A stretch of 64,000 nt of DNA from contig QFXG01000014.1 in NCBI GenBank assembly GCA_003402285.1, positions 62,001-126,000 of the forward strand, read 5' to 3'. Shown here piece after piece: positions 5,473 to 32,511 of the stretch. The notes beneath the pieces are model-generated. The model searched no databases and was not told where the DNA came from. It saw nothing but the letters and a program-made list of their open reading frames with translations. Source of the stretch: Candidatus Nitrotoga sp. SPKER. GTDB lineage: Bacteria > Pseudomonadota > Gammaproteobacteria > Burkholderiales > Gallionellaceae. Numbering within the stretch: the first letter of the stretch is position 1; every line of letters begins with the position of its first letter. The translations under genes were made by a program, and so were the position numbers.

Positions 5473-5522
5473 CTCGCTTATAACATTCGCTCCCCATCAA
5501 ACAACCGGATATACACTGTAGA

Positions 5523-6101
5523 TCAGATGGCAATATAGACTTCGGTATTGACCGGAACAAGGTCGAACAACTCCAGAAGGTCGGCATTGCGCATACGCAC
5601 ACAACCCTTCGAGCCAGGTTCGCCGAGCTGAGTATTTTCGGGCGTACCATGTATATAAATATAGCGACGCATGGTGTCACACGCACCTAAGCGGTTGAAA
5701 CCCACTTCACTACCCGATAACCACAATATGCGCGTCAATATCCAATCCCGCTCTGGATATTGCGCCCCTAATTCTGGCGTATAAATTTCGCCGGTGGGAC
5801 GACGCCTGATAAACACAGTGTTGAGCGGCTGATTTGCGCCGATTTTAGCGCGAATAATATGCTTGCCACGCGGCGTGCAAAAGCTGCCGAATTTCTCACC
5901 CACTCCATTAGCAGCGGTAGAAACTGGATAACGATGCACGGGCATGCCTGAATCATCAAGTAACTCAAGTGTTTGCGTGGCTATATGAATTTTAATTTTT
6001 ATAATATAACCCCACGCAGCTGTGTAGCTAAATCTGTCTTTAGTATTTTTAAGAATATCAAATTTAACTAAATTTATAAAATACTTAAACGTAATTTTCA
6101 A
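5523..6101 (-). CDS. L,D-transpeptidase, YkuD domain
   Basis: Cell-wall enzyme of the YkuD family that cross-links peptidoglycan stem peptides through an active-site cysteine. The catalytic motif is intact: IHGTPENTQLGEPGSKGCVRM, with the conserved His and the Cys in SKGC near residue 169 of the longest frame. The domain begins around residue 33 (IKIKIHIATQTLELLDDSGMPVHRYPVSTA). The start is unclear. The longest frame begins with a TTG at 6101 and gives about 30 AT-rich residues that do not resemble the family or a signal peptide. Related cytoplasm-start proteins begin right at the domain, which here would require an ATT or ATA codon near 6000. Domain call is strong; the N-terminus is not. 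Confidence 0.85.
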   Translation of the reverse strand: MKITFKYFINLVKFDILKNTKDRFSYTAAWGYIIKIKIHIATQTLELLDDSGMPVHRYPVSTAANGVGEKFGSFCTPRGKHIIRAKIGANQPLNTVFIRRRPTGEIYTPELGAQYPERDWILTRILWLSGSEVGFNRLGACDTMRRYIYIHGTPENTQLGEPGSKGCVRMRNADLLELFDLVPVNTEVYIAI

Positions 6102-6311
6102 ACATTGCAGTCCACAAAAAACGGTTCAGCACTCAAAATGAAAGACCGTGAATTTTACATAAAACAACATTTAGCCTCGATAAGTGCCTTACCGCACAGA
6201 TTGTCTAATAAGTTAAGAACGATAATCTCTCTCGAAATGATGCTCAGAAATATGGAACTTTCATTCTCATCATAAATTAATAGCTTGTTTAATCTTAATG
6301 GAGGTAATTTA

Positions 6312-6764
6312 ATGAATACTATTCTCAACCAAACACGATCTGCTTTTTATATCGGTACTTTTGCAGTCAGCGTTTTGATTGGTGGCATTGGCCTCGCATC
6401 CGCTGCCTCAATTAATGCAACCCTGAATGGTGACCAAGAAGTACCGCCCGTTAGCACTTCCGCGTCCGGCATAGGGAAAATAGAAGTGGCATTAGACAAA
6501 TCCATTCGTGGATCGATAACGACTACGGGAATCGATGGTACAGCAGCTCATGTTCATGAAGCTCCGGCAGGAAAAAATGGGCCGGTTATCATCACTCTTA
6601 AAAAAACGTCTGCCAATGTTTGGGAAATTCCATCCGGCGCCAGTTTAACCGACGCGCAATTTGCTAATTACAAAGCCGGAGATCTTTACCTAAACGTTCA
6701 TAGCGTAGCCCATAGAGACGGAGAAATACGTGGCCAAATAAAAGAGGATCGCAGCCATCGTTGA
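6312..6764 (+). CDS. Secreted CHRD-domain protein
   Basis: Exported 150-residue protein with a signal segment (AFYIGTFAVSVLIGGIGLASAA) followed by a single CHRD domain: INATLNGDQEVPPVSTSASG at the start, AAHVHEAPAGKNGPVIITL in the middle and LYLNVHSVAHRDGEIRGQI at the end, all hallmark blocks of this immunoglobulin-like module first seen in chordin. Bacterial CHRD proteins are periplasmic or extracellular with unknown roles. The ATG at 6312 has a strong GGAGGT six bases upstream. A stem-loop and a tiny proline-rich ORF follow. Family identification is confident; function is not known. Confidence 0.88.
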   Translation: MNTILNQTRSAFYIGTFAVSVLIGGIGLASAASINATLNGDQEVPPVSTSASGIGKIEVALDKSIRGSITTTGIDGTAAHVHEAPAGKNGPVIITLKKTSANVWEIPSGASLTDAQFANYKAGDLYLNVHSVAHRDGEIRGQIKEDRSHR

Positions 6765-6776
6765 AACAACAACCCT

Positions 6777-6798
6777 AACCCCATCAACAGATGGGGTT
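6777..6798 (+). terminator. Stem-loop after the CHRD gene
   Basis: A perfect 9-bp stem, AACCCCATC and GATGGGGTT, closes a four-base AACA loop 12 bases after the CHRD stop codon. It is followed by CAGTATTCTTT, a weak T-rich run. It could be a leaky terminator or processing site separating the CHRD gene from the small ORF at 6826. Confidence 0.55.
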
Positions 6799-6825
6799 CA
6801 GTATTCTTTGACAAGAGAGCAAATA

Positions 6826-6981
6826 ATGTCACCAAACTTTCCCAGCCATCGCCCCGGTCAAGAGCCTAGGATACCTCCAGAGCCACACACACATCCAACA
6901 CCCCATCCCATTAACGATCCACCACCCTACGATCCAGATCCTTCTCCGTGGAATCCAGATGATGATCCACCAAACGAATAA
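6826..6981 (+). CDS. Tiny proline-rich protein (51 residues), hypothetical
   Basis: An ATG at 6826 preceded by AAGAGAG about six bases upstream opens a 51-codon frame ending with TAA at 6979-6981. The product, from MSPNFPSHRPGQEPRIPPEP to WNPDDDPPNE, contains 19 prolines, several histidines and an acidic C-terminus, with no signal peptide or membrane segment. Such a composition indicates an unstructured polyproline-rich peptide. It lies 61 bases after the CHRD gene on the same strand, beyond a stem-loop. The biased composition and good start context favour a real gene, but I recognise no family and it could be a fortuitous frame. Confidence 0.45.
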   Translation: MSPNFPSHRPGQEPRIPPEPHTHPTPHPINDPPPYDPDPSPWNPDDDPPNE

Positions 6982-7459
6982 GCAAGAGGGAAACTGATTA
7001 ATCCTACGTTCTTGTACACTCTGTTAGTATTTTTATACTACCGCTCGTCATTTGAAAAAATATTTTTCGGATGCTCCAATTAATCACATTATCCTAACGA
7101 ATTATCGCTTCATGCTTCCAAATAGCCGAACCAAGGATCTCAATCCCCCATCCCCGAAAAAAGCCATAAGTTCAATCAGGTATTCCCGAAAAATTAGTTA
7201 GACGCAAAAAATCCGCTATCTATCACAATCAAGAGAGCGGTGTTTAAAAAACTCTCCGTTTAATGCCTGTCAGGGGAGACTTTGAGCTACAAATAATTAT
7301 TGGGGGAATTATCTGCACTCACTAGCAAAAAACGGGAGTGATTGCAGAATAATGGAATGTGGGTTAATTATCTGTGCGGTACCGCACTTTATTTATTAAT
7401 TTCACATAAAACAGAGTAGGCATTAAGCTTACATGATCGACTTTTAATAAATAGTGATT
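6982..7459. other. Intergenic region with short palindromes
   Basis: No gene is apparent in these 478 bases between the proline-rich ORF and the end of tadA. It holds a small hairpin, TAGTAT-TTTT-ATACTA at 7025-7040, a loose inverted repeat (TGCACTCACT near 7313, AGTGATTGCA near 7336) and a perfect 14-base palindrome at 7374-7387. Confidence 0.4.
7374..7387. promoter_or_regulatory. Perfect 14-bp palindrome, possible operator
   Basis: GTGCGGTACCGCAC is a perfect palindrome inside a gene-free stretch. It could be a binding site for a dimeric regulator, but no promoter or regulated gene can be assigned because the nearest gene, tadA, ends here rather than starts. Confidence 0.25.
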
Positions 7460-7996
<537 letters not shown>

Positions 7997-8156
7997 TCAA
8001 ACGCAACTTTAGTGTGTAGCGTAGCATCGGCGCTTTCACCCGGCTCACCTTTATTATCATCTCGCATATGTATGCTTCAGCTATACGCCTGAAGCACCTT
8101 TAAATTGACATCAGATGCGCTACCATCCTGTCACAGACAATTTATGTGAACAACCC

Positions 8157-9131
8157 ATGAATCGGACAGAGCGTTTTTACAAAATTGAGCAACTACTGAT
8201 TTCACATCGAGTCGTACCCATTTCCACCTTTCTGGAAGCGCTTGGGATTTCACCGGCCACATTTAAGCGTGATCTGGATTACCTGCGTGACCGAATGAAC
8301 ATGCCCATCGAGTGGGATCGGAACGCCAGAGGGTATCGATATGCAACAACCCACCCAAATAACAAATCCTCTACCCTGCCTGGAATGTGGTTTTCTGCAT
8401 CAGAGGTGTATGCTCTGCTGACAATGCAACACCTGCTCGCCAATCTTGGCAATGGCTTGTTGAGCAGTCATATCGCACCCTTGCAGACCCGCCTTAAAGC
8501 CCTGCTTGGCAGTGCAGACCATAGCGTTGAAGAAGTCGAAAAACACATCAAATTGGAGCACGCCACCCGGCGCACCTTACCTCTTCAGTGTTTTGAGACG
8601 ATCGCCACGGCAACATTGCAACGGAAGCAACTGCGAATCACTCACTTCAATCGTCAGAACGGGCAAGAAAACGCCCGCATTATTTCACCCCAGCAGCTTC
8701 TGTTCTATCGGGATAACTGGTACGTCGACGCATGGTGCCATCTGAGAGAAGGAATCCGTAGTTTCTCTATTGATGCCGTCCGTCATGCGGAATTGTTAAA
8801 AGCATCTGCAATTGAATTGTCGCAACATGAACTCAAGAAATATTTCAACAAAGGCTACGGTATATTCTCAGGCATAAAAGTAGCTTGGGCAAAACTCAGG
8901 TTTACCCCAGAGCGAGCACGATGGGTCTCCACTGAAAAATGGCATCCCGAGCAAAAATCTCGATTTGAGAAAAATGGATATTATTGTTTGAAGGTACCTT
9001 ATTCCGATGACCGCGAACTATTAATGGACATACTCAAGCACGGTACTGAAGTTGAGGTTATAGCACCTGTCACACTAAGAGCAAACATCCAGAAATTGCT
9101 TGAATCCACTTTGGCGCAATATAAAACCTGA
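8157..9131 (+). CDS. WYL-domain transcriptional regulator next to the cas operon
   Basis: DNA-binding regulator of the YafY/DeoR-HTH plus WYL class. The N-terminal winged helix reads MNRTERFYKIEQLLISHRVVPISTFLEALGISPATFKRDLDYLRD. The middle has the WYL core LLFYRDNWYVDAWCHLREGIRSFSIDAVRHAELL, and the C-terminal WCX-like part ends LLESTLAQYKT. WYL domains sense nucleic-acid or nucleotide ligands, and several WYL proteins regulate CRISPR or other defence loci. This gene is co-oriented with and just upstream of the small ORF and cas3, so I infer a role in controlling the cas operon. The ATG at 8157 matches the family N-terminus; the frame is open further upstream to 8115. Confidence 0.87.
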   Translation: MNRTERFYKIEQLLISHRVVPISTFLEALGISPATFKRDLDYLRDRMNMPIEWDRNARGYRYATTHPNNKSSTLPGMWFSASEVYALLTMQHLLANLGNGLLSSHIAPLQTRLKALLGSADHSVEEVEKHIKLEHATRRTLPLQCFETIATATLQRKQLRITHFNRQNGQENARIISPQQLLFYRDNWYVDAWCHLREGIRSFSIDAVRHAELLKASAIELSQHELKKYFNKGYGIFSGIKVAWAKLRFTPERARWVSTEKWHPEQKSRFEKNGYYCLKVPYSDDRELLMDILKHGTEVEVIAPVTLRANIQKLLESTLAQYKT

Positions 9132-9142
9132 AATTTATTTTT

Positions 9143-9167
9143 CAGTAGCTCACGCCATGAGCTACTG
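9143..9167 (+). terminator. Perfect stem-loop after the WYL gene
   Basis: CAGTAGCTCA at 9143-9152 and TGAGCTACTG at 9158-9167 form a perfect 10-bp stem with a five-base loop, starting 12 bases after the regulator stop codon. No uridine tract follows, so it could be a factor-assisted terminator, an RNA stabiliser or an operator between the regulator and the cas genes. Confidence 0.5.
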
Positions 9168-9215
9168 CCCCCACTATCATGGGTTCATCCAAATTAATTT
9201 AATAAGGAGAAACCC

Positions 9216-9311
9216 ATGTGGAAAGAATTCAAAATTGACCCAGATCGGCTGGTATTTTTTGGATGCATGTTCGGGGGAATTGTGTTGGCTGTTGTGAATT
9301 TGATGTATTGA
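9216..9311 (+). CDS. 31-residue putative membrane peptide upstream of cas3
   Basis: ATG at 9216 with a strong AAGGAG seven bases upstream opens a frame of 31 codons ending with TGA at 9309-9311. The product starts MWKEFKIDPDRLVFF and continues GCMFGGIVLAVVNLMY: a charged N-terminal dozen residues, then about 18 hydrophobic residues sufficient for one membrane helix. It lies between the WYL regulator and cas3 on the same strand, 58 bases before cas3. I recognise no family. The excellent binding site and amphipathic layout support translation. It could be a small accessory membrane protein of the locus, a leader peptide, or a passenger. Confidence 0.55.
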   Translation: MWKEFKIDPDRLVFFGCMFGGIVLAVVNLMY

Positions 9312-9369
9312 AAATTGTGGAAAGACAGACACCTTCTCTCGATGCAAGCCTTTATTAAGGACGGATGAA

Positions 9370-12132
9370 ATGAGCGAACCGAAATCATATTATCGTTATT
9401 GGGGCAAGGCACAACCATCCGAGGATGGTCAGGCAGCGTTTCACCTGTTGCCGTTTCATTGCCTAGATGTGTCAGCGGTCGGTATGACTTATCTTGAGCG
9501 GTCTTCTTTGCTTAAATCCTGCTGTGAATTGCTTAATTGTTCTAAACAGGCATTTTTATCATGGTCGGCTTTTTTGTTGGCGTTGCACGATTTGGGGAAA
9601 TTCAGCGAAGCATTCCAATCACAACGACCTGATTTAATTTTTGCGTTGCAAAAACGTGAACTGAACCCGACCAAAATATACAGCGAGCGGCATGACTCAT
9701 TGGGTTATTGGTTGTGGGATGAATACCTTGTTGACGAAATTCTGCTGAAAATAGACATCGATGATTCGCGTCAAACCCAGCGCAGTCTCAAGTGTTGGCT
9801 GTTAGCTGTGACCGGGCATCATGGTATGCCGCCCAAACCAAGTGGAAATGCAGATAATTTTTTCCGTAATGAAGACAAGCAAGCAGCCGCAGACTTTGTA
9901 CAAGCGATGGGCAAATTGTTGCTAACTGACGAAGCCAAGCATATTCCCACAAATGTGAACACGAAAGATTTTCAGCGTCTCAGTGAAATGATGTCGTGGT
10001 GGTTTGCGGGGATTACGGTGTTAGCCGACTGGCTCGGTTCAAATACTATTTTTTTCCCATATCAAAACCAGTCCACAGATTTGGAAAAATACTGGGAATA
10101 TGCACAAGCTCAAGCAACCAAAGCATTAGCTCAGTCAGGGGTTTATCCATCTACCATTGAAAATGGACTCTCTTTCAAAGATTTATTTCAGAAGATTCAA
10201 GAAGCATCACCATTGCAGCAATGGGCAGTGTCAGTGGAAATGCCACAAGCACCGCAAATCTACTTGCTGGAGGATGTAACAGGAGCAGGAAAAACTGAAG
10301 CCGCGATAATGTTAGCTTATCGCCTAATAGAGCAAGGTTTGGCGGAAGGTTTTTTTATTGGATTACCGACGATGGCGACTGCCAATGCCATGTACAAGCG
10401 TGTAGCAGAAGTCTATCAAAAACTCTTTACTGACAATGCCAATTTAGTATTGGCACACGGACATAAAAAACTGGTGGAAGAATTTGCAGCTACTATTTTC
10501 CCCTCAGACACACCAGAACAGGATGGTGCACAACTGGATGAGACCGCTTCAGCGCGTTGCAGTGCATGGCTGGCTGACCATAGCAAACGTGCATTATTAG
10601 CCTCAGCTGGAATAGGAACAATAGACCAGGCTCTGCTAGCTGTTTTGCACAGCAAGCATCAATCGCTTCGCTTATTAGGTTTGTTCAATAAGGTGCTGAT
10701 TGTTGATGAGGTACATGCTTGTGATGCTTATATGCAAGGCGTACTGGAAGTACTGCTGGAATTCCATGCACGCACTGGTGGCCCGGTAATTTTATTATCA
10801 GCCACGTTACCCAACCGTATGAAACAAGCCTTGCTCAACGCCTATGCCAAAGGTCGACATTCAGCCCTCGCGCCTACGTTACGATCAGATGCCTACCCAC
10901 TGGCAACAAGCTGGCACGATGGTCAAACTGTTTTGCTGGAAAATGCGCTGACCTCACGAGCCTGCGTTTCCCGCATAGTGCAAGTGCATTACGAAATCGA
11001 TGATGAAAAAGTTTTTGCGCACATTATTGCTGCGTTACAGCAAGGTCAATGTGTAGGATGGATACGCAATACCGTAGCAGATGCGATGGCCGCCTACGAA
11101 CGCATATCCCAAGCGATTTCCCCCGAAAAAATAACGCTATTTCATGCCCGCTTTGCCCTAAAAGATAGGCTGGACAAAGAAGAACAAGCGCTGTCATTTT
11201 TTGGCGAAGGCAGCAAACAACATGATCGGCAAGGACGTCTAATGATTGCCACACAGGTCGCCGAACAATCATTAGATGTAGATTTCGATGCGCTGATTAC
11301 CGACCTCGCACCAATAGACCGTATTTTGCAACGAGCAGGACGTTTGCAGCGTCATGTGCGCGATGCTCACGGCAATCGTTTACTTGCAACTGCTAAAGAT
11401 AAGCGGTCAGCACCATGCTTGTGGGTATATGCTCCCGTGTGGACAGATCAACCAAAGGCAGACTGGTACAGCACTGTATTCAACAAAGCCCAATATGTTT
11501 ATGGGCATCATGGTCAACTGTGGCTTACGGCAAAGGTGTTACAGAAAGGCAGCTTCACTATGCCAGCCGATGCCAGGTACATGATTGAATCCGTCTTTTC
11601 AGAAGCAGAAATACTGCCGGAATCTCTTTCTAAAAATGCTTTAAAAGCAGTAGGGCAAGATATGTCAGAAGCCAGTTTGGCGCAGCTAAACACGCTAAAA
11701 ATCGACGGTGGTTACAAGCGCGGCGAAATCGGTGACTGGTGGAGCGAAGCCAAAACCCCTTCTCGCTTGGGCGAAGAAACAATGGAAGTCATGCTGGCAA
11801 AGTGGGTTGATGGAAATTGGCAGCGTTGGGCGGAGGGTGTGTGGACATACAGCATGGTAAAAGTGGCATCCCGATTGTTGGCAAGGGTAGATACACCATC
11901 TGATCCAACACAAAAAGCAGCTTATGTGTATTTGCAACAGACCTTGCCCAGCCAAGGTAAATGGTGCGTTTTGCTGCCATTGATACAACGTGTGGATGGG
12001 ATATGGCAAGGGCAGGCATGGACTGCCGGAAATGAGCAATCAGGGAAAAAACCAGAGCTTCTGACATGGTTTTACGATGCGGATTTGGGTTTGCGAGTAG
12101 CAGAACCTCAAAATGGAGCGACAGTAGAATGA
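9370..12132 (+). CDS. cas3: Type I-E CRISPR helicase-nuclease Cas3
   Basis: Interference effector that is recruited to Cascade-bound R-loops, then nicks and degrades target DNA while translocating. The 920-residue protein has an N-terminal HD nuclease (LLALHDLGKFSEAF, His73-Asp74; later TGHHGMPPK) fused to a superfamily 2 helicase with Walker A EDVTGAGKTEAAIML near residue 300, the DEVH box IVDEVHACDAYM near 445, motif III LLSATLP and motif VI region DRILQRAGRLQRH. Length and HD-helicase order match Cas3 of E. coli type I-E. ATG at 9370 has AAGGACGG upstream. It overlaps cas8e by four bases (ATGA), so the whole operon is probably one transcript. Confidence 0.97.
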   Translation: MSEPKSYYRYWGKAQPSEDGQAAFHLLPFHCLDVSAVGMTYLERSSLLKSCCELLNCSKQAFLSWSAFLLALHDLGKFSEAFQSQRPDLIFALQKRELNPTKIYSERHDSLGYWLWDEYLVDEILLKIDIDDSRQTQRSLKCWLLAVTGHHGMPPKPSGNADNFFRNEDKQAAADFVQAMGKLLLTDEAKHIPTNVNTKDFQRLSEMMSWWFAGITVLADWLGSNTIFFPYQNQSTDLEKYWEYAQAQATKALAQSGVYPSTIENGLSFKDLFQKIQEASPLQQWAVSVEMPQAPQIYLLEDVTGAGKTEAAIMLAYRLIEQGLAEGFFIGLPTMATANAMYKRVAEVYQKLFTDNANLVLAHGHKKLVEEFAATIFPSDTPEQDGAQLDETASARCSAWLADHSKRALLASAGIGTIDQALLAVLHSKHQSLRLLGLFNKVLIVDEVHACDAYMQGVLEVLLEFHARTGGPVILLSATLPNRMKQALLNAYAKGRHSALAPTLRSDAYPLATSWHDGQTVLLENALTSRACVSRIVQVHYEIDDEKVFAHIIAALQQGQCVGWIRNTVADAMAAYERISQAISPEKITLFHARFALKDRLDKEEQALSFFGEGSKQHDRQGRLMIATQVAEQSLDVDFDALITDLAPIDRILQRAGRLQRHVRDAHGNRLLATAKDKRSAPCLWVYAPVWTDQPKADWYSTVFNKAQYVYGHHGQLWLTAKVLQKGSFTMPADARYMIESVFSEAEILPESLSKNALKAVGQDMSEASLAQLNTLKIDGGYKRGEIGDWWSEAKTPSRLGEETMEVMLAKWVDGNWQRWAEGVWTYSMVKVASRLLARVDTPSDPTQKAAYVYLQQTLPSQGKWCVLLPLIQRVDGIWQGQAWTAGNEQSGKKPELLTWFYDADLGLRVAEPQNGATVE

Positions 12133-13814
12133 ATTTATTGGAAGAAAAATGGTTACCCGTTCGCCGCAACACCGGGCAAGTGGACTGGATCACACCGCAC
12201 CAAATTACCGAGCCGGATATTGTGGCGTTTGCAGCTAGCCGAGCCGACTTCAACGGTGTGTTGGCGCAAATGATGATTGGCTTGTTGCAAACGACGACCC
12301 CAATTGATGACGAAGACGACTGGGAAGGCCTATTAGATACACCACCTACTGCCGAAGACCTGCAAAAATGGTTTGTACCAACTGCCGAGGCATTCGTGCT
12401 GGATGGTGATAGCGCTCGATTCATGCAGGATTTCAGCCTAACCACAGCAGAAGGTGCGGAATGCACGATTGATGCGCTATTAATCGACTCTGCGGGTGGT
12501 TCGGCGATTGACAAGAACACCGATCATTTCGTCAAACGCGACACCGTAAAAGCGATGTGTCCGCATTGCGTGACGACGGCATTATTTACCTTACAAACGA
12601 ATGCACCCGCTGGCGGTGCGGGACATCGCACCAGTTTGCGGGGCGGTGGCCCATTGACTACGTTGTTAGTTGCCACGCCATCACGTAGCTTATGGCAAGA
12701 TTTGTGGCTCAACGTAAAACCACAACGCATTTTCTTGCAGCAAGGCGGCGATGCAAGAAAGTCTGCAAAGTACTTTACCTTTCCTTGGCTAGCCGAGATT
12801 ACCCAGATTCAACCAGTCGGTGGCGAAACACAACCACTGCAAGTGCATCCGCACCATGTATTTTGGGCTATGCCGCGTCGTATCCGCGTTGACTTTACGG
12901 ATGTGCAAACCGGGGTGTGCGATATTTGCAAACGCGATTCGACACAGCTGCTGCATCGTTATGTCACCAAGCCGCAAGGCTTGAATTATAAAGGCGTGTG
13001 GCGACATCCGTTTTCTCCCTACTACGAAACAAAAGAAGGCTGGTTGCCTGTGCATCCTCAACCGGGAGGTTTTAGCTATAAAAACTGGCTGGCCTGGGTG
13101 CTGGGGGTTAAGCAAGGGAAAAAATCAGTTCAAGCCGCTGGGGTTGTAGATTACTTTTTGCAAGCGCGAAAAAAATATCAGAAATCAGGCCAGTTCAGGC
13201 TATGGGTGTTTGGCTATGACATGGACAATATGAAACCCCGTTGCTGGTACGAAACCACCTTCCCTTTGTATAGCTTGGCAGAAGCAGCACGGTCTACCCA
13301 GACGCAGATTCAAAATTTGATCGCCGACAGAATTGAAGCATCAGAGCAAGCCGTCTTTTATTTGCGACAGGCCGTCAAACAAGCATGGTTTGGTGAGAAT
13401 GATTTGCGCGGCGATTTGAGCTTTGTTGATAAAGCGTTTTGGGACAACACGGAACCCGATTTTTATCAGCAGCTAAACAACTTAATGAAACAGGCTCGCA
13501 CCGAGGCAAACATTGACATGGATGATGCCAATTTCATCATTGCCTTGGGCGAAACGTGGCACAAAGTTTTAATCAAATGCGCGACCAAGCTGTTCGATGT
13601 GGATATTGTCGGGGCAGGCTCTATCGGCCAGCAAGACCCACGCCGTATTGCCGAGGCCTATAACAGTCTGCAAAGAAATATGCGCGGCGATGCGATAAAA
13701 ACGATCTTGCGTTTGCCCGTGACTGAGAAAAAAAGCAAGCCTGGCACAAAAGGTAAGAACGCCAAATCAACCGCCGAGCCATCAATTCAAACATCAATGC
13801 AGAGGGAAGAATAA
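12129..13814 (+). CDS. cas8e: Cascade large subunit Cas8e (Cse1/CasA)
   Basis: Large subunit of the type I-E Cascade complex that recognises the PAM, helps open the target and recruits Cas3. The protein of 561 residues begins MNLLEEKWLPVRRNTGQVDWITP, the typical Cse1 N-terminus. It contains the family block MCPHCVTTALFTLQTNAPAGGAGHRTSLRGG and a second Cys pair, VCDICKRD, that could bind zinc. The ATG at 12129 overlaps the cas3 stop as ATGA, deciding against the longer open frame from 12066. A basic C-terminal tail rich in Lys and Ser follows the four-helix bundle. Confidence 0.95.
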   Translation: MNLLEEKWLPVRRNTGQVDWITPHQITEPDIVAFAASRADFNGVLAQMMIGLLQTTTPIDDEDDWEGLLDTPPTAEDLQKWFVPTAEAFVLDGDSARFMQDFSLTTAEGAECTIDALLIDSAGGSAIDKNTDHFVKRDTVKAMCPHCVTTALFTLQTNAPAGGAGHRTSLRGGGPLTTLLVATPSRSLWQDLWLNVKPQRIFLQQGGDARKSAKYFTFPWLAEITQIQPVGGETQPLQVHPHHVFWAMPRRIRVDFTDVQTGVCDICKRDSTQLLHRYVTKPQGLNYKGVWRHPFSPYYETKEGWLPVHPQPGGFSYKNWLAWVLGVKQGKKSVQAAGVVDYFLQARKKYQKSGQFRLWVFGYDMDNMKPRCWYETTFPLYSLAEAARSTQTQIQNLIADRIEASEQAVFYLRQAVKQAWFGENDLRGDLSFVDKAFWDNTEPDFYQQLNNLMKQARTEANIDMDDANFIIALGETWHKVLIKCATKLFDVDIVGAGSIGQQDPRRIAEAYNSLQRNMRGDAIKTILRLPVTEKKSKPGTKGKNAKSTAEPSIQTSMQREE

Positions 13815-14323
13815 TGGAAGAGAAAAAATCAACACCTGTCGATGTCCTTTTTGCAAAACCGTTATTTCAATGGTGGCAAGGGTTAGAAGAAGACCGTGCC
13901 AGCCGCGCAGTATTGCGACGATGTGCAACACTCGATGCGGTCACGTTAAGTGATGCTTACCAGCTTTTTTATCGTTATATGCTGACTTGCGGCTGGCCAG
14001 AAGATGCCAGTGAATGGCAAAGAGATAAATTGGCCGCCATCGCCGGATTGTTGGCACACGTCAAAACTGACGACACGCAACGCTTGCCCATCAAAATGTC
14101 TGAATTAACAGGTGACAGGCCTTTGGTGTCAGAACTCCGCTTTCGTGATTTGCTAAAAGTCGAAACCACCGATGATTTGTTCATCAGCTTGCGTCGCGCT
14201 TTACCCTTGATGGGATATCAGGCCAGCATTGAGCAACTGGCACACGATGTTTATTGGTGGAATGACGACACCAGAAAAAAATGGGCTTACAGCTATCGTT
14301 GGCCTACCAAGCCTTCAGCCTAA
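13814..14323 (+). CDS. cse2: Cascade small subunit Cse2 (CasB)
   Basis: Small helical subunit present in two copies in type I-E Cascade, where it stabilises the displaced DNA strand. The 169-residue product carries FQWWQGLEEDRASRAVLRRCATLDAV, the basic helix typical of Cse2, and ends VYWWNDDTRKKWAYSYRW, a well-conserved C-terminal block. Its ATG shares the last base of the cas8e stop codon (TAATG), indicating translational coupling. Confidence 0.94.
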   Translation: MEEKKSTPVDVLFAKPLFQWWQGLEEDRASRAVLRRCATLDAVTLSDAYQLFYRYMLTCGWPEDASEWQRDKLAAIAGLLAHVKTDDTQRLPIKMSELTGDRPLVSELRFRDLLKVETTDDLFISLRRALPLMGYQASIEQLAHDVYWWNDDTRKKWAYSYRWPTKPSA

Positions 14324-14366
14324 ACTTCCTACCAAACCATTTACAAAAATATTCAAGGAGAAAACC

Positions 14367-15437
14367 ATGTCCCGCTTTATTCAATTACATATTCTGACCA
14401 GCTACCCACCCTCAAATCTGAATCGCGATGATACCGGTCGCCCGAAAACAGCCGTGATTGGCGATTGCACGCGCTTGCGTATTTCTTCGCAAAGCTTGAA
14501 ACGGGCTTGGCGTACTTCTGATATTTTTGAGTCCGCGCTGAAAGGTCATATTGGCATACGCACCAAAGAGATGGGGATAAATATTTATCAATCGCTAACC
14601 AAACAAGGTGTCAATGAAAAAAATGCGCGTGAATGGGCAAAAGCAATTGCCAGTCAGTTTGGCAAATTGAAATCTGATAAAAAAGCCGAAAATAACGAAG
14701 ATTTGCACGTTGAGCAATTGGTACATTTCAGTCCTGAAGAAGAAAAAGCGATTGCTGATTTGGTAACTCAATTAGTAGCATCAGCCGCTGCGCCCACAGA
14801 GGATAACCTGAAGCTGCTGCGAAAGCAGCACACCGCAGTGGATATTGCAATGTTTGGCCGAATGCTGGCTTCATCACCCTCCTTTAATACAGAAGCTGCC
14901 ATACAAGTAGCTCATGCCATTACCGTGCATAAGGCCGCCATAGAAGATGATTATTTTATTGCCGTTGATGATCTCAATACTGGCGAAGAAGATAAAGGTG
15001 CCGCGCATATCGGCGAACTTGGTTTTGGTGCGGGTGTTTTTTATTTGTATATCTGCATTGACCGTGAACTGTTGCAGGCAAATTTGGGGGGCGATGCCGA
15101 ATTGACACAAAAAACCTTGACTGCTTTCGTGCAAGCAGTCACCAAAGTATCGCCCACTGGCAAACAAAATAGTTTTGCTTCGCGCGCTTATGCGGGTTTT
15201 GTGCTGGCAGAAAAAGGCGATCAACAGCCACGCAGCTTGGCCCAAGCTTTTCTCAAACCAATAAAACCCAATCCAGAAAAAGGTGAGGACACCATGACTC
15301 GCGCCATCAAAGAATTAACCAAACGCCGCGACAATTTCAACACGGTATATGGTGATTGCGCCGACATCAGCACGCAATTTAATATTGAAACGGGTGAAGG
15401 TAGCCTAAGTGCTATAGCCGCATTTATAGCGGAATAG
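14367..15437 (+). CDS. cas7e: Cascade backbone subunit Cas7e (Cse4/CasC)
   Basis: RNA-binding backbone protein, six copies of which coat the crRNA spacer in Cascade. The 356-residue protein begins MSRFIQLHILTSYPPSNLNRDDTGRPKTAVIGD and has the conserved LRISSQSLKRAWRTSDIF, followed by the thumb and palm region DIAMFGRMLASSPSFNTEAAIQVAHAIT. ATG at 14367 has AAGGAG six to eight bases upstream, which decides the start against an open frame running into cse2. A 43-base gap separates it from cse2. Confidence 0.96.
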   Translation: MSRFIQLHILTSYPPSNLNRDDTGRPKTAVIGDCTRLRISSQSLKRAWRTSDIFESALKGHIGIRTKEMGINIYQSLTKQGVNEKNAREWAKAIASQFGKLKSDKKAENNEDLHVEQLVHFSPEEEKAIADLVTQLVASAAAPTEDNLKLLRKQHTAVDIAMFGRMLASSPSFNTEAAIQVAHAITVHKAAIEDDYFIAVDDLNTGEEDKGAAHIGELGFGAGVFYLYICIDRELLQANLGGDAELTQKTLTAFVQAVTKVSPTGKQNSFASRAYAGFVLAEKGDQQPRSLAQAFLKPIKPNPEKGEDTMTRAIKELTKRRDNFNTVYGDCADISTQFNIETGEGSLSAIAAFIAE

Positions 15438-27406: not shown

Positions 27407-27794
<388 letters not shown>

Positions 27795-28421
27795 GACATT
27801 GGAACGAGACGCCAGGGACCCCTGGGATCATTGTTTGGCTTTCTATACGCTGAACGTGTTTTGCATCTGGTTCAATCCGGTTTCGTACCACCTTGAAGTG
27901 TTCCGCATCTATGGCGTAGCAAATCACATAGTCGTGAACGTCTCCGATTGCAGAGTTGTTATCACGCGAGTATCGTTTTTGCCAAACGTTTTGTGCGACG
28001 AATGACTTTAGACCAAAAACCTCGTCTAGTAAGACTCTCAGGTATGGCATTTCCCTATCATCAATCGTGATTCACAGCGAACCATCTTCCGACAGCAACC
28101 GCCGAATAATTTCCAACCTGTCGCGCATTAGCGACAGCCAGATCGAATGCTCTACCCCGTCGTCATAATGCGTGAACGCGCTGCCGGTGTTGTACGGCGG
28201 ATCAATAAACACGCACTTCACTTTCCCCGCAAACTCCGCCTCCAAAGCCTTCAACGCCAGCAAGTTGGCTCTGAAGATGAGTGGGGTGTCGAAAATATCG
28301 TTCTCTGTCATTCGAGGCTTCGCGTGATAACTCTTTCCCGTGTTTTCCAGCAAAACGCACGGCTCTGACCTAGCCGAGTATTCTTGCCGATCCAGGTGAG
28401 CGCTAGGTTTTGTCGCTTCAT
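27795..28421 (-). pseudogene. Type III-like adenine-specific DNA methyltransferase (Mod), broken and truncated
   Basis: Homology runs from the ATG at 28421 (MKRQNLALTWIGKNTRLG), which overlaps the herA stop as ATGA, through the catalytic motif VKCVFIDPPYNTGSAF and WLSLMRDRLEIIRRLLSEDGSL to QKRYSRDNNSAIGDVHDYVI and a last piece RKPNNDPRGPWRLVPM. Lesions seen: a one-base frameshift near 28360-28380; an in-frame TGA at 28072-28074 where relatives have Trp (SEDGSL-stop-ITIDDRE); a frameshift near 27845-27855; and truncation by an IS end at 27794. Beta-class enzymes carry the target-recognition region and the SAM-binding FxGxG after DPPY, so both are lost here. It cannot make an active methylase. 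It was originally the fourth gene of the DUF2130-SIR2-HerA operon. Confidence 0.85.
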
Positions 28422-30181
28422 TTATCTACACACTTACTTTGCCGTCTCAAGCTCTCAACGGCAACTTTGATTGCATGCGTATTTGAGGATTTCTCTCCCC
28501 ACTCACGCCAGAAGTTTTTGGTAAGACTCAGTGGTGTCGCCTTTGGCTTGTCCAATTTAATTCGTGACGGAAGAAGAATTGAATCGCCTAGAACAATAGC
28601 CTCTCCAATGTCAAGGAGCGGCAGTACATCAGCAATACCAGCCATGCTATCAGGCATTACTGACTTCACTGCTGATTGGTCCTGTTCATTGGTAAGTCTT
28701 AAGGCAATAAAATTATTGCACTGGCTCAGGATTGTTTTGCTGACGTCCGAAGGACGTTGACTCACGACCAAGAGCGCGAATCCGTATTTTCTGCCTTCTT
28801 TAGCAATACGCTCAAAGGTATCTAGTGCCCGTTTAGTTGCCGCATCAGCATCAGACCTGACTGGTAAGTATAGGTGTGCCTCATCACATACAAGACATAC
28901 CGGGGTACGAGCATCAGCTTTCATCCAGAACTGAACGTCATAAAGAACTCGCGCTAAAACACTGACTACAGTTGGTAGAACATCAGAAGGAACCTCGGAA
29001 AAATCAACTACTTTTATTCCTGAGCGCGAAGCTGACTTTGTAGATAAAAACATTTCTGCCAGACTTTGCAGCCATTCATATGAGCTTGTATCCAATGGAG
29101 TTTGAAATAAAAAACCATATCGTCGATCTGAAATTTTTGCCTCTAATCTACTTATGAATCTAGTAAGTTTTCCATGCCACGGCCCTTGCTTTTCACGATT
29201 AGAGCTACCAATAACCATTTCTTGATCGTCATTTATCAAACTATCCCTGACCGCATTCAGGTCATAAGGAATCGGAGAATCTACTGTAAAGGAAGAAAGA
29301 ACTTCTGTGAGGTTCAGGCCTTCAAGAGATTTTCGTTTCTGGTCAAAAACGACGTTGGTAAAACGCATAGCCTGATTAGGTGCATTGTCATCGCTCCGAT
29401 CAAGCAATATGGAAAGCATCTCTTCCCGATTGAGGAGCCAGTGAGGCAAGAACAGACTGGTGGGCTTGGGTTCTACAAGATCGCCGGGGCCAGCAATTTT
29501 TAGATATTCAGCATACCCATGAGTTCGATCTTTTGCCAGCGATGCATACTCTCCATGCATATCGAGGAGAACAATATTTGGATGATTCAGCGTATTCGCT
29601 CGCTCAAGAAGTGCCGCTACCGTGTAACTTTTTCCACTACCTGTGCTGCCAAGAATTGCTGCATGCCGCTGAAAGAACCTGTCTCCGTCTGCTACCGCCT
29701 CAGCGGTCGGATCAATGGCAAAATGCCCTAGACGAAGTGCTTTGTCCGCCGGAACATCTTGTGACAAGACCCCCATGAATGCCGTCAAATTTACCCCGTG
29801 AATGAGGTGACATGCTTGATCAATTTGTGGGCAAGAATTCGCTCCTCGCTTGAATGTCGGGCCCGAGCCGCCATCCTTTATTCGGTAAGTTCCCACCAAA
29901 ACAGCTCGTATAGTGTCTTGCATTTCATCCGGCTTTGGCGACGTATCATCATCCGGCGCTTCATTAAGTCCAATTGCGTCGGAAGGTAATCGTGTGATCC
30001 GCTCGACAATTGATATTAGATATTGATGTCCTGTAGCACCTTGGATAGCAATTAAATTACCTACCATCACTTTCTTGAGCAATTCATGGTCATCAATATG
30101 AATGAACACACGCATCGTATCCACAGACATAACGCGTCCAATGGGGCTTTCACTTTCAAAAGACATTACGGTTGAAGCCAT
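28418..30181 (-). CDS. HerA-type hexameric ATPase/translocase of a SIR2-HerA defence pair
   Basis: A 587-residue FtsK/HerA superfamily ATPase. It has an N-terminal HAS-barrel-like region (GRVMSVDTMRVFIHIDDHELL), Walker A GSTGSGKS at about residues 178-185, Walker B VCLVCDEAHLYLP near 430 and a sensor/arginine-finger region ALLVVSQRPSDVSKTILSQCNNFIALRLTNEQD. HerA proteins form DNA-translocating hexamers. When paired with SIR2 proteins they assemble a complex that depletes NAD during phage infection. The ATG at 30181 shares one base with the SIR2 stop (TGATG) and has AGGAG eight bases upstream, inside the SIR2 gene. Its own stop overlaps the methylase start. Strong translational coupling on both sides. 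Confidence 0.9.
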   Translation of the reverse strand: MASTVMSFESESPIGRVMSVDTMRVFIHIDDHELLKKVMVGNLIAIQGATGHQYLISIVERITRLPSDAIGLNEAPDDDTSPKPDEMQDTIRAVLVGTYRIKDGGSGPTFKRGANSCPQIDQACHLIHGVNLTAFMGVLSQDVPADKALRLGHFAIDPTAEAVADGDRFFQRHAAILGSTGSGKSYTVAALLERANTLNHPNIVLLDMHGEYASLAKDRTHGYAEYLKIAGPGDLVEPKPTSLFLPHWLLNREEMLSILLDRSDDNAPNQAMRFTNVVFDQKRKSLEGLNLTEVLSSFTVDSPIPYDLNAVRDSLINDDQEMVIGSSNREKQGPWHGKLTRFISRLEAKISDRRYGFLFQTPLDTSSYEWLQSLAEMFLSTKSASRSGIKVVDFSEVPSDVLPTVVSVLARVLYDVQFWMKADARTPVCLVCDEAHLYLPVRSDADAATKRALDTFERIAKEGRKYGFALLVVSQRPSDVSKTILSQCNNFIALRLTNEQDQSAVKSVMPDSMAGIADVLPLLDIGEAIVLGDSILLPSRIKLDKPKATPLSLTKNFWREWGEKSSNTHAIKVAVESLRRQSKCVDK

Positions 30182-31221
30182 CAAATAACTCCTTTATTGA
30201 ATCCATCAAGATGCCAAAGCTCTTCATCAACAATTAATTCTTCCCCGCTCGAATTGCTAATCCGAGTTCTGGAATCCGTGTCTGATACTGAACACAGAGC
30301 AATGACCTGAACGCCACTGCTATTGGCAATAGCTTTCTTAGCATTTTCTGAAAGTTGCTTTGTTATGATTACAGTGGGTTTCGTGAGCTTGAGATCAGGG
30401 CAGAGATGTTGTTCTAAATGATCGTCATTAAAACCGTACCCAATGAACATCAAGCGAGTGGCATTAGCCACACATTTGTTCCCAGAAGTCCGCTGATCGT
30501 CGAACGCCCAGCGAAAACTTTCTCTGTACTTGCTTGATCCGGGCGTAATGATGATTGGCGTCTTTCCGATGTTTATCGGACACCTAACCACACGCCCATC
30601 TATATCGAACCAATCCAGGCTGCCATGCGGTTTATAAATACACAGGTTTGCGACGGATCGAAACATCGCATTTTTTCCTGCCATGAACAACTCCCGATGA
30701 GAATCTGCTGATCTTTTTGGGTCAGAATGGCCAATAAGATGACCCACAAAACGGGTATCTACTCCGATGCCAGCCGCTTCTGTGGCAAATTCAATAAGTC
30801 GGTCGTAGTTCGGCGTAATGAGGTGAAATTTCTTCCCTGCCTTGAAGAGATGTTTAACAAAAGTCGTGAAAGGTAGAATCTTCGCTCCGGAAATTACTCG
30901 CGCAAAGACCTCCAATTCCTTTTCCAGTATGAAGCGCGCAGTGGCTTCTACAATTACATCGACAGTCGTGGCTTTTAGGTTCACTTTCCCCATTGCCGCT
31001 TCAAGATGATCACCAGCATCTAATGCAGCAACCATATCATTCCATGCCATATCGGGTGCAGTGTCTAAACAAGGGGGAATGACATTCTTAAGATGCATGC
31101 CAAGTGGCCACATGCCCGGTATTCCCTCAGCCATCGACAAGCCCGTCCCGACAATAAGAAGAAGTCCTTCTTGTAGATGATCTTGAAGCAATCGCTTTAC
31201 CTCTGTAAGTTCGAGCGCCAC
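30181..31221 (-). CDS. SIR2-like domain protein, probable NAD-consuming defence effector
   Basis: A 346-residue protein with a SIR2_2-type NAD-binding domain. Visible motifs are LLIVGTGLSMAEGIPG (GxGxS, residues 25-29), TPNYDRLIEF with Asn138 and Asp140, KPHGSLDWF with the presumed catalytic His199, and the defence-type signature FIGYGFNDDHLEQH (261-272). In defence systems such domains hydrolyse NAD to stop phage growth. Immediate pairing with HerA downstream matches the known SIR2-HerA class. It starts with GTG at 31221, three bases after the DUF2130 stop, with AAGGA at a good distance. All key residues look intact, so the gene is probably functional. Activity is inferred from family knowledge only. 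Confidence 0.9.
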   Translation of the reverse strand: MALELTEVKRLLQDHLQEGLLLIVGTGLSMAEGIPGMWPLGMHLKNVIPPCLDTAPDMAWNDMVAALDAGDHLEAAMGKVNLKATTVDVIVEATARFILEKELEVFARVISGAKILPFTTFVKHLFKAGKKFHLITPNYDRLIEFATEAAGIGVDTRFVGHLIGHSDPKRSADSHRELFMAGKNAMFRSVANLCIYKPHGSLDWFDIDGRVVRCPINIGKTPIIITPGSSKYRESFRWAFDDQRTSGNKCVANATRLMFIGYGFNDDHLEQHLCPDLKLTKPTVIITKQLSENAKKAIANSSGVQVIALCSVSDTDSRTRISNSSGEELIVDEELWHLDGFNKGVI

Positions 31222-31224
31222 GGA

Positions 31225-32511
31225 TCATCCTTCAAGTGCGTTTGGTTCGCTTAGAGTTCGTAACTCCAACCCCTCAATCTCCTGCAACGACTTCCCTGCA
31301 ATCCCCTGCAAGTCCCCATACATCCCAACCGTCGCACCCATCACACGCATAATCTGCTCTTCTCGCTTGGCCCATTGCTTCATAATGACTTTTCTTTCCT
31401 TGTCTAGATCTTCCTGCATGGTAGAAAAAGCTTCAACGATGGCTTCAACGCGCTGGCGAAAACGCGGGCCGGTGAGGTACTGGTAGACCATTTCGGTCTT
31501 GGTCTGTTGACCTTCGGTGGACTGCCGCGCAAGGGCAAGCTCCAGCAATGACTGGCGCAAAACCATCGCTACCGGCAATGCGGCGCGGGGATGTGTTACC
31601 CAGACGCCATCTACCATTTCGAAAGTTTCAACGCCTTTTGGCAATATCTGGCTTACGATCACGGCGATTTCTGCCTTTGCGGTGCGCTGGTCTCCGCGAA
31701 GTTTTACCAGCCAGGCATCGCTCCAGTTTTTGGTGCGCTTGAACTCCCACAAAATAGTGCCGCCGGAGTGGCCGCCAGCTCCGACAACACGGTGCAGCAC
31801 ATCCCCGCCATATTCACCTTTTGGTACTGGCTCGATGGCATCGAAAGGAAATTTGGTGCGCAACAGATTTTCCAGCTCCAGTTCCTGGACTTCGCCCTGC
31901 AATTGTTGTGATCCTTGCTCAGCCCGACGCTTAAGGTCTTCAATCTGTTTCTGCATCGCGGCAATGGTCTGCTCTTTCTCCATTACCTTGAGCTTCTGTT
32001 CGTCCTCGGCTTCTTTTTTGGCTTGCGTACGGACGTGGGTCAATCCATCCTGTACCCGTTTTTCTACCGTGAGCTCCAGTTCACGCTTGGCATCATCGAG
32101 TTCACGCTGCTTTTTGATGAGTTCGGTTTGTGCCTTTTGTGCCTCGGCCAATTTTTCATTGTTTGTTTTAAGCACCTCTTGCAATTCAGACAGTTCACGT
32201 GCCTTGTTTTCCAGTTCGACGGCACTGGCAAGTTTAGCTTTCCTGGATTCCTCAGCAATAACGCGAGAACGTTCTGCTTTTAACTGTATCGCAACTTGAT
32301 CGGCCACTTGATCGTCGAGTTTGCGCTTATCTTCTGCAAGCTGCTTTTCCTTGTCGCGCATAGCCTGTTCGCGCTGTACGATGTCATTGTCCTTCTGCGC
32401 TAATTGTTGCTCAAATTGCTTACGTGTCGCCGCGATCAGAGGTGCTGCCAATGATTCTGTGAGTTTGATCTCAGTCTTGCAGCTTGGACAGGTAATGGTA
32501 GGTTCGGTCAT
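31225..32511 (-). CDS. DUF2130 coiled-coil protein, putative nuclease-like defence component
   Basis: A 428-residue cytoplasmic protein. The N-terminus TEPTITCPSCKTEIKLTESLAAP has a CPxC zinc-ribbon half, followed by about 190 residues of charged heptad-like coiled coil rich in Glu, Lys and Gln, then the DUF2130 domain: YGGDVLHRVVGAGGHSGGTILWEFKRTKNWSDAWLVKLRGD and VSQILPKGVETFEMVDGVWVTHPRAALPVAMVLR. The EFKRTKNW segment in a beta strand resembles the E-x-K end of PD-(D/E)xK nucleases, as proposed for the family, but catalysis is unproven. It is the first gene of the DUF2130-SIR2-HerA-methylase operon. ATG at 32511 has AAAGGG upstream. DUF2130 also occurs outside defence loci, so its role here rests on context. 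Confidence 0.82.
   Translation of the reverse strand: MTEPTITCPSCKTEIKLTESLAAPLIAATRKQFEQQLAQKDNDIVQREQAMRDKEKQLAEDKRKLDDQVADQVAIQLKAERSRVIAEESRKAKLASAVELENKARELSELQEVLKTNNEKLAEAQKAQTELIKKQRELDDAKRELELTVEKRVQDGLTHVRTQAKKEAEDEQKLKVMEKEQTIAAMQKQIEDLKRRAEQGSQQLQGEVQELELENLLRTKFPFDAIEPVPKGEYGGDVLHRVVGAGGHSGGTILWEFKRTKNWSDAWLVKLRGDQRTAKAEIAVIVSQILPKGVETFEMVDGVWVTHPRAALPVAMVLRQSLLELALARQSTEGQQTKTEMVYQYLTGPRFRQRVEAIVEAFSTMQEDLDKERKVIMKQWAKREEQIMRVMGATVGMYGDLQGIAGKSLQEIEGLELRTLSEPNALEG

What the first reader, a model, noticed from the sequence alone, without database searches (positions are those of the whole stretch)
27795..32511. Four-gene DUF2130-SIR2-HerA-methyltransferase operon, a possible variant or extension of SIR2-HerA defence
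Three intact genes and one dead gene are joined with almost no gaps on the minus strand: DUF2130 to SIR2 three bases, SIR2 to HerA one-base overlap (TGATG), HerA to the Mod-like methylase four-base overlap (ATGA). SIR2-HerA is a known NAD-depleting anti-phage pair. A DUF2130 protein with zinc-ribbon half, long coiled coil and a putative PD-(D/E)xK-like domain as first gene, and a type III-style methyltransferase as fourth, are not part of the minimal pair as I know it. The coupling suggests they work together, possibly as a sensor or DNA-targeting layer.
Basis: partly seen in the sequence, partly recalled or inferred. Interest (0 to 1): 0.75.

Follow-up and report, generated by a model that had tools for sequence, protein, structure and literature searches.

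The report
Swappable defence slot in restriction locus
In a nitrite-oxidising bacterium, a known two-gene anti-phage alarm (SIR2-HerA) sits as replaceable cargo inside a broken restriction-modification locus, between a probable nuclease gene and a dead methyltransferase, and relatives carry other defence genes in the same place.

Summary
The four genes and their tight junctions are real. They are not a four-part SIR2-HerA system. Comparison of 84 DUF2130 loci shows a larger layout: SNF2 helicase - DUF2130 - [slot 1] - Mod - [slot 2] - Res, a type III restriction-modification locus with interchangeable cargo. In 21 loci with at least 150 aa of Mod, slot 1 holds SIR2-HerA in 5 (two lineages, HerA 29% alike), other defence-type genes in 13, unassigned genes in 2, nothing in 1. 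Eight other genomes of the genus (Candidatus Nitrotoga) have DUF2130 at 92-96% identity while the next genes differ; homology stops about 30-45 nt before the gene's end and resumes 8 nt after the window's Mod ATG. Of 10 SIR2-HerA pairs found without using DUF2130, 3 lie in such loci, 3 between type I hsdS and hsdR, 4 elsewhere. An Aliarcobacter plasmid carries DUF2130-Gabija-Mod-RhuM-Res. The window copy is a remnant: no helicase or Res, Mod dead, DUF2130 and SIR2-HerA intact. Most likely SIR2-HerA acts alone by depleting NAD; DUF2130, probably a PD-(D/E)XK nuclease, belongs to the host locus. Embedding is known; this layout looks new.

The parts
31225..32511 (-). DUF2130 gene: CxxC knuckle, long coiled coil, predicted PD-(D/E)XK-type domain; first gene of the preserved part and left border of slot 1
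   Evidence: PF09903, 270 bits; C8, C11, D237, E256, K258 invariant in 28 sequences
31256..31271 (-). left edge of the variable slot: pairwise DNA homology between Nitrotoga loci stops here, 31-46 nt before the end of the DUF2130 gene
   Evidence: gene nt 1241-1256 in the window's eight Nitrotoga pairs; sharp C-terminal divergence
30181..31221 (-). SIR2 (SIR2_2) NADase-type effector of the slot cargo, intact
28418..30184 (-). HerA-type ATPase, partner of SIR2, intact (ATG start possible at 30181)
28413..31271 (-). slot 1 as occupied here: SIR2-HerA cassette, replaced by other genes in relatives
27795..28421 (-). dead remnant of type III methyltransferase gene mod (frame breaks, internal stop, 3' part missing)
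27511..27726 (-). transposase fragment next to the truncated end of mod
   Evidence: translation; Pfam HTH_Tnp_1, HTH_23

Best explanation
The feature is the surviving middle of a mobile type III restriction-modification locus whose fuller form in relatives is SNF2 (DrmD-like) helicase - DUF2130 - slot 1 - Mod - slot 2 - Res. Slot 1 is exchangeable; here it holds a complete SIR2-HerA cassette. Shown: layout, sharp slot edges, exchange of contents, intact motifs in the window, no helicase or Res and a dead Mod there. Inferred: when the locus is whole, Mod and Res methylate and cut; DUF2130 acts with them as an accessory DNA nuclease; the cargo (SIR2-HerA, Gabija, OLD, AAA_13, GmrSD, IetAS and others) is a second layer for phages that escape or inhibit restriction. 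In the window only the cargo and DUF2130 can still work: SIR2-HerA would sense phage infection by itself and deplete NAD. New cargo probably arrives by recombination in DUF2130: two loci carry a displaced second copy of the DUF2130 3' end in front of the older cargo.
For: 84 loci read: Mod follows DUF2130 on the same strand in 27 of 84 (25 of 70 with at least 6 kb downstream), precedes it in 0 of 84 (56 with at least 6 kb upstream), lies antisense downstream in 0 of 84 (tblastn E <= 1e-6). In 21 with at least 150 aa of Mod, slot 1 is SIR2-HerA 5, AAA_13/PDC-S06 5, OLD/AAA_15 3, SMC-like ATPase 2, AAA_15 plus Dam 1, GmrSD 1, ImmA/IrrE plus PIN 1, unassigned 2, none 1. SNF2 relative (at least 800 aa aligned) upstream on the same strand in 12 of 18 with at least 3 kb: within about 30 bp in 5, with 0.6-3.8 kb between in 7. 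The gene after DUF2130 is on the same strand in 23 of 23 Mod loci (20 within 130 bp) and in 32 of 49 loci without Mod (16 within 130 bp). G006 against G007: DUF2130 92%, Mod start 85%, Mod end-RhuM-Res 93% DNA identity, slot contents unrelated. Displaced DUF2130 3' ends: L040 (139 bp, 95%), L093 (159 bp, 84%), weak traces in L063. SIR2-HerA also between type I hsdS and hsdR in G015, G288, G277, and without DUF2130 or Mod in G262, G027, G104, G278 and at 4 of 4 plasmid places read. Same layout with Gabija in Aliarcobacter.
Against: No function was measured. Mod-anchored reading found DUF2130 in only 1 of 26 regions, a fragment at a contig end, also with a wider profile, so DUF2130 is not universal in this Mod family; many of those regions are cut by contig ends. 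57 of 84 DUF2130 loci have no Mod, and in the phylum sample 0 of 19 described DUF2130 places show this Mod, Res, SNF2 or the type I queries (the three closest to the window's have only 0.6, 1.5 and 5.3 kb downstream), so DUF2130 often lives alone. The 84 are the best 80 of 152 DUF2130 hits plus 4, so they over-represent Nitrosomonadales. The 27 Mod loci include fragments of 48-113 aa. SIR2-HerA is one of the two commonest cargoes, which leaves room for a preference. The window's SIR2-HerA may be unexpressed.
Confidence: 0.74

Rival explanations
1. DUF2130, SIR2, HerA and Mod form one four-component system in which DUF2130 and Mod sense or target DNA and gate the SIR2 NADase.
For: Tight junctions with overlaps; order conserved in six loci including different hosts and two SIR2-HerA lineages; SIR2 lies within 5 kb of DUF2130 in 3 of the 19 phylum-sample places described (L187 and L188 with HerA, L190 cut by the contig end).
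Against: 16 of 21 Mod loci lack SIR2-HerA in the slot; 7 of 10 independently found SIR2-HerA pairs lack DUF2130-Mod; equally tight junctions occur with other cargo, for example L084, L088, L095; two-gene SIR2-HerA systems are reported as anti-phage defence (passages of PMC12198126, PMC11263360).
Confidence: 0.09
2. DUF2130 is an ordinary chromosomal gene whose 3' end happens to be an insertion site; it has no working link with restriction or with the cargo.
For: DUF2130 stands alone in what looks, by lengths and strands of the following frames, like a shared site in Nitrosospira and Nitrosovibrio (L079, L083, L091, L113); displaced 3' ends; 0 of 19 phylum-sample places show the restriction genes searched.
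Against: Inside Nitrotoga DUF2130 itself changes genomic site: contiguous homology upstream of its ATG is 0-171 bp outside the genomes that share the debranching-enzyme site. A SNF2 relative precedes it in 12 of 18 Mod loci. It precedes Gabija-Mod-RhuM-Res and type I operons in other phyla.
Confidence: 0.15
3. A decaying defence island with no function left in this genome.
For: Mod dead, no Res or helicase found beside it, transposase fragment at the edge; G322 copy has HerA broken by a frame break and a DDE transposase.
Against: DUF2130, SIR2 and HerA are open with the motifs checked; low dN against high or saturated dS versus G322 for DUF2130 and SIR2.
Confidence: 0.12

Closest known systems
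SIR2-HerA two-gene anti-phage system
   Same: Adjacent SIR2_2 and HerA genes, PADLOC SIR2 354 bits and HerA 756 bits; solved HerA relatives such as 9c1m, 8ziq, 8xau and SIR2 relative 8yhx; NYD and H motifs present.
   Different: Sits inside a type III locus; scores far below the NCBIfam anti-phage SIR2 and HerA equivalog cut-offs (35.6 of 500; 315 of 850), so another subfamily than those.
Defence genes embedded in restriction-modification operons (for example DarTG2 between hsdS and hsdR; Septu in Hma)
   Same: Cargo lies between core genes of a restriction locus, edges sharp, contents vary (passages of PMC12255303 and PMC12629846). Several slot proteins hit PADLOC candidate models PDC-S02, S05, S06 and HEC-06.
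   Different: Type III locus led by SNF2 and DUF2130, two or three slots; the passages read describe type I and Hma.
Type III restriction-modification (Mod-Res)
   Same: The relative G007 has Mod (PDLC03636, 719 bits) and Res (PDLC03648, 714 bits).
   Different: Additional DUF2130 and, in many relatives, SNF2 genes; the window has no Res and no working Mod.
DISARM class 1
   Same: The SNF2 protein's best PADLOC match is DrmD (PDLC02619, 696 bits), near a methyltransferase gene.
   Different: The methyltransferase is type III Mod followed by type III Res; drmA, drmB and drmC were not searched for.

Membership tests
SIR2-HerA | adjacent SIR2_2-domain gene and HerA-type ATPase gene | tested here: met
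SIR2-HerA | NADase catalytic residues (NYD and H) | tested here: met
   TPNYD at 136, KPHGS at 197; role of N, Y, D and H from passages of PMC11263360
SIR2-HerA | ATPase Walker A and B in HerA | tested here: met
SIR2-HerA | NCBIfam equivalog cut-offs for anti-phage SIR2 and HerA | tested here: not met
   35.6 of 500; 315.4 of 850; 174.1 of 800 bits
SIR2-HerA | NAD depletion and phage protection | not testable with these tools
   needs experiment
Type III restriction-modification | intact Mod and Res subunits in the window | tested here: not met
   Mod broken, no Res match in 11 kb downstream; met in relatives such as G007
Embedded defence cargo in a restriction locus | defence genes between conserved core genes, contents exchanged while flanks are kept | tested here: met
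PD-(D/E)XK nuclease (DUF2130 C-terminal half) | conserved D and ExK in the alpha-beta core | tested here: met
   D237, E256, K258 invariant in 28 sequences down to 38% identity; helix ending at 220, strands 225-228, 238-243, 249-258, helix 266-277, strand 282-287 with block pLDDT 82-94 (overall pTM 0.39)
PD-(D/E)XK nuclease (DUF2130 C-terminal half) | significant structural match to a solved nuclease | tested here: inconclusive
   0 of 355 matches at E <= 0.001; many of the best (E 0.02-0.1) are entries that I recall as bearing such nucleases: SPARDA, DdmD, MspJI, McrBC, Bax1; coiled-coil entries such as Rep15:Rab3B are among them too
DISARM class 1 | drmA, drmB, drmC present | not tested
   only DrmD similarity of the helicase was scored

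The most novel reading that the evidence does not exclude
SNF2-DUF2130-Mod-Res is an undescribed kind of restriction locus with a built-in docking place: DUF2130 is a dedicated nuclease of the restriction machinery whose 3' end also serves as the recombination port through which new defence cargo (SIR2-HerA, Gabija, OLD, GmrSD, AAA_13) is plugged in under one promoter, in several phyla.
Probability: 0.3. Interest if true: 0.66.

Novelty: new variant of a known kind. Interest (0 to 1): 0.46.

Why it matters
It places an uncharacterised Pfam family (DUF2130) at a recurrent position in restriction loci and predicts a nuclease role. It gives a natural series in which the same flanking genes carry different defence cargo, so questions about why defence systems are embedded in one another (backup, shared promoter, joint transfer) can be tested by swapping cargo in one locus. 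The slot also gives a search handle: unassigned slot proteins (for example 430 aa in G006, 668 aa in L042) are candidates for new defence genes.

Tried and rejected
Close SIR2 relatives in viral contigs: none. Window DUF2130 DNA in E. coli genomes: none. Solved-structure sequence search with DUF2130: only two weak coiled-coil hits. First structure model from 29 close sequences had an unreliable nuclease half (mean pLDDT 67.7, many segments under 50), so a more diverse alignment was used. Hypothesis that DUF2130 always leads this Mod family: rejected by Mod-anchored reading (1 of 26). Hypothesis that DUF2130 is always a restriction component: rejected, 57 of 84 loci lack Mod and 0 of 19 described places of the phylum sample show the restriction queries. 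The profile used missed distant DUF2130s; positions were used instead, where L182 could not be placed, leaving 19 of 20 described. Because of that miss, absence of DUF2130 was checked again at the end with a profile of 41 sequences (12 of them from the sample) that finds DUF2130 in 20 of 20 sample regions: 0 of 11 regions around the seven other SIR2-HerA pairs and the four plasmid pairs, 1 of 26 Mod regions, 0 of 2 Roseomonas and Deinococcus regions. Type I genes were sought with Chryseobacterium and G288 queries in the 84 loci; none matched at E 1e-8.

Rows dropped before counts: loci with under 3 kb upstream were left out of the SNF2 count (3 of 21); loci with under 4 kb downstream and no Mod were left out of the tree label (7 of 84); one internal stop in L078 was set to X for the tree. 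On that tree Mod presence needs at least 17 changes among 77 labelled loci, 27 with Mod; no shuffled control was run. In one search 12 of 84 loci were left out (short flank or no frame found).

Papers: passages only of PMC12255303, PMC10952713, PMC12629846, PMC9503650, PMC12198126, PMC11263360, PMC12839542; search listings only for the rest. The preprint by Payne and co-workers on embedded defences was not seen; it is known from the reference lists of two of these papers and from recall, so earlier description of this slot there cannot be excluded. The word DUF2130 occurs in 3 held papers (listing only; none has a defence title). The listings showed no paper that by title or abstract start describes this locus.
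Full report
OBSERVATION. The broken gene aligns with the intact Mod of G007 over residues 14-189 with an internal stop and frame breaks and then ends; a transposase fragment lies beside it. The genome is of the genus Candidatus Nitrotoga: same-genus genomes G008, G015, G001, G009, G017 and G012 have contigs of the same lengths as named Nitrotoga records L038-L042 and L047.

DUF2130 IS CONSTANT, THE NEXT GENES ARE NOT. Nine of 61 genomes searched have a close DUF2130 (E <= 1e-60), all in this genus: the window's own and eight others at 92-96% identity. After it come, in the eight: SIR2-HerA of another lineage, then intact Mod, RhuM, Res (G007); SIR2-HerA and scraps of Mod and Res (G008); two unassigned proteins, then Mod, RhuM, Res (G006); ImmA/IrrE plus PIN (G009); a cargo like that of G006, then AAA_15 plus Dam (G001); a 668-aa unassigned protein and a Mod fragment (G017); a 230-aa protein that was not scanned (G015); nothing recognised (G012). 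Window and G007 share DUF2130 at 96% but SIR2 at 24% (212 aa aligned) and HerA at 29%, so the pair was replaced, not diverged. In the window's eight Nitrotoga pairs DNA homology ends at nt 1241-1256 of DUF2130; against G006 and G007 it resumes at window 28413, 8 nt after the Mod ATG.

THE WHOLE LOCUS. A scan of genome contigs (84,980 species by the tool's text) found 152 DUF2130 relatives and kept the best 80; with the window, G322, G006 and G007 this makes 84 loci. Mod lies downstream on the same strand in 27 of 84, upstream in 0, antisense downstream in 0; Res downstream in 23 of 84, 3 of them without Mod. In 21 loci with at least 150 aa of Mod, slot 1 is SIR2-HerA in 5 (window, G007, L057, L099, L103), AAA_13 proteins (PADLOC PDC-S06) in 5, OLD/AAA_15 in 3, SMC-like ATPase in 2, AAA_15 plus Dam in 1, GmrSD in 1, ImmA/IrrE plus DUF4411 PIN in 1, unassigned in 2 (L031, L109) and empty in 1 (L081). 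Slot proteins of L045, L048, L054, L070, L075, L084, L088 and L095 were scanned themselves; those of L051, L056, L061, L073 and L093 are named after scanned members of their cluster. Between Mod and Res lies RhuM, a YhcG nuclease, a Zeta-like protein, another gene or nothing. A SNF2 helicase, best PADLOC match DrmD, lies upstream of DUF2130 on the same strand in 12 of 18 loci with enough sequence, within about 30 bp in 5 and with 0.6-3.8 kb between in 7. G322 keeps the order, with DUF2130 85%, SIR2 81%, HerA segments 81-93% and Mod 76% identical, HerA interrupted by a DDE transposase and only 80 aa of Mod.

REVERSE VIEWS. SIR2-HerA pairs found without using DUF2130 number 10: G000, G007, G015, G027 (61 genomes); G262, G277, G288, G322 (369 genomes); G104, G278 (369 genomes). 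Three lie in DUF2130-Mod loci, three between hsdS and hsdR of type I operons (G015; G288; G277), four elsewhere (G278 is cut by a contig end). No DUF2130 lies in the seven other regions. The hsd names are by eye, backed by tblastn matches to annotated Chryseobacterium subunits and to each other. On plasmids 281 records match this SIR2; 214 are from Klebsiella, Citrobacter, Escherichia, Enterobacter, Serratia and Salmonella, genera that do not occur among the 37 records with a relative of the window's DUF2130 at E 1e-50; 0 of 4 SIR2 plasmid places read have DUF2130 or Mod next to the pair, though one has other restriction genes about 3 kb on (L011). Mod-anchored: 24 of 369 class genomes have this Mod; of 26 regions read, DUF2130 is in 1 (edge fragment, L129), a SNF2 relative in 10, an IetAS-type pair in 5, named after the scanned pair of L118. 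So DUF2130 is a lineage-linked part of the locus, not a constant of the Mod family.

OTHER PHYLA. An Aliarcobacter plasmid has DUF2130 (33.5% identical to the window's) - GajA - GajB - Mod - RhuM - Res (PADLOC GajA 633 bits, GajB 897, MTase_III 563, REase_III 498). Two Chryseobacterium plasmids have DUF2130 in front of a type I methyltransferase, S subunit, HTH, PIN and helicase. Of 10 DUF2130 plasmid places read these are the 3 with restriction genes downstream. Roseomonas and Deinococcus plasmids have SNF2 - gap or cargo - Mod - Res without DUF2130. In a phylum sample of 349 genomes, 21 have DUF2130 at E 1e-30; of 20 places read, 19 could be described and 0 of 19 show the Mod, Res, SNF2 or type I queries; the three more than 75% identical to the window's are each followed within 4 bp by another gene: an OLD-like one (by eye, like L095), SIR2, and a 498-aa unassigned frame (two of the three end within 1.6 kb).

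HOW CARGO ARRIVES. Two of 84 loci hold a displaced second copy of the DUF2130 3' end before an older cargo: L040, 139 bp at 95%, 1041 bp downstream; L093, 159 bp at 84%, 1833 bp downstream; L063 shows two short traces. In L040 the stretch before the displaced copy matches G006 at 94% over 2.3 kb including DUF2130. This fits single-crossover integration of incoming DUF2130-cargo DNA in DUF2130; a site-specific recombinase is not excluded. Contiguous upstream homology between Nitrotoga loci reaches only 0-171 bp beyond the ATG outside the genomes that share the debranching-enzyme site (window, G006, G012; enzyme named by eye), so DUF2130 and what follows seem to move together.

WHAT DUF2130 IS. 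D237, E256, K258 and the CxxC are invariant in 28 sequences down to 38% identity. The second model has the helix-strand-strand-strand-helix-strand order of PD-(D/E)XK at block pLDDT 82-94; that this order is typical is general knowledge. Foldseek gives no match at E <= 0.001; entries that I recall as nuclease-bearing (SPARDA, DdmD, MspJI, McrBC, Bax1) are frequent among the best weak hits, beside coiled-coil entries.

MECHANISM. Shown: architecture, exchange, intact motifs. From the literature (passages of PMC12198126 and PMC11263360): SIR2-HerA assembles into a large complex with NADase activity. Inferred: in the window the pair acts alone; DUF2130 is a leftover accessory nuclease of the restriction machinery that may still act or simply provide promoter and leader for SIR2-HerA.

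NOVELTY. Embedding of defence genes between restriction genes is established for type I (passages of PMC12255303, PMC12629846). What I did not find described (listings) is DUF2130 as a positional partner of restriction loci, the SNF2-DUF2130-Mod-Res layout, and SIR2-HerA as its cargo. The embedding preprint cited by those papers could not be read, so this is stated with reserve.

CHECK. On re-reading, absence of DUF2130 was first based on queries that miss distant members; one search repeated it with a wider profile and the counts stood.

Noticed in passing
L020:3670-13814 (Nitrotoga G015); L016:3954-10980 (G288); L017:1-9045 (G277): SIR2-HerA pairs lie between hsdS and hsdR of type I restriction operons in three genomes, one of them of the window's own genus.
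   Followed up: partly
L153-L171: 19 viral contigs encode DUF2130; in several the next genes look like replication or recombination genes (polymerase-like, SNF2-like, PD-(D/E)XK-like, all by eye), which suggests a DNA-metabolism role.
   Followed up: partly
L174:7662-16719; L175:2249-11279: Chryseobacterium plasmids: DUF2130 precedes a type I restriction operon with an HTH-PIN pair between S and R genes.
   Followed up: partly
L041:9310, L042:9684: The same stretch (the end of what looks like guaA by eye plus about 260 bp) lies upstream of DUF2130 in two Nitrotoga genomes, in L041 apart from the gene itself; a related stretch lies in L040: possible attachment-site remnant of an integrative element.
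   Followed up: partly
L033:693-7331; L019:522-1976; L038-L042 downstream: Wadjet-type jet genes (JetC by PADLOC; the others by eye) follow Res or its remnants in several Nitrotoga genomes.
   Followed up: no
L106, L108: Rhodoferax and Sulfurimicrobium records carry nearly identical DUF2130 (short end branches) followed by SIR2-HerA or its remains, pointing to recent transfer.
   Followed up: no
L187, L188, L149: SIR2-HerA lies within about 5 kb of other DUF2130 genes in three further contexts, separate or divergent from them.
   Followed up: no
L014 (G322), 5498-14990: The relative of the window operon sits among genes that look like nif genes by eye.
   Followed up: no
L031:11856-13148 and L042:11658-13664: Slot-1 proteins of 430 and 668 aa without any Pfam or PADLOC match at E 1e-5: candidates for new defence genes.
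   Followed up: no
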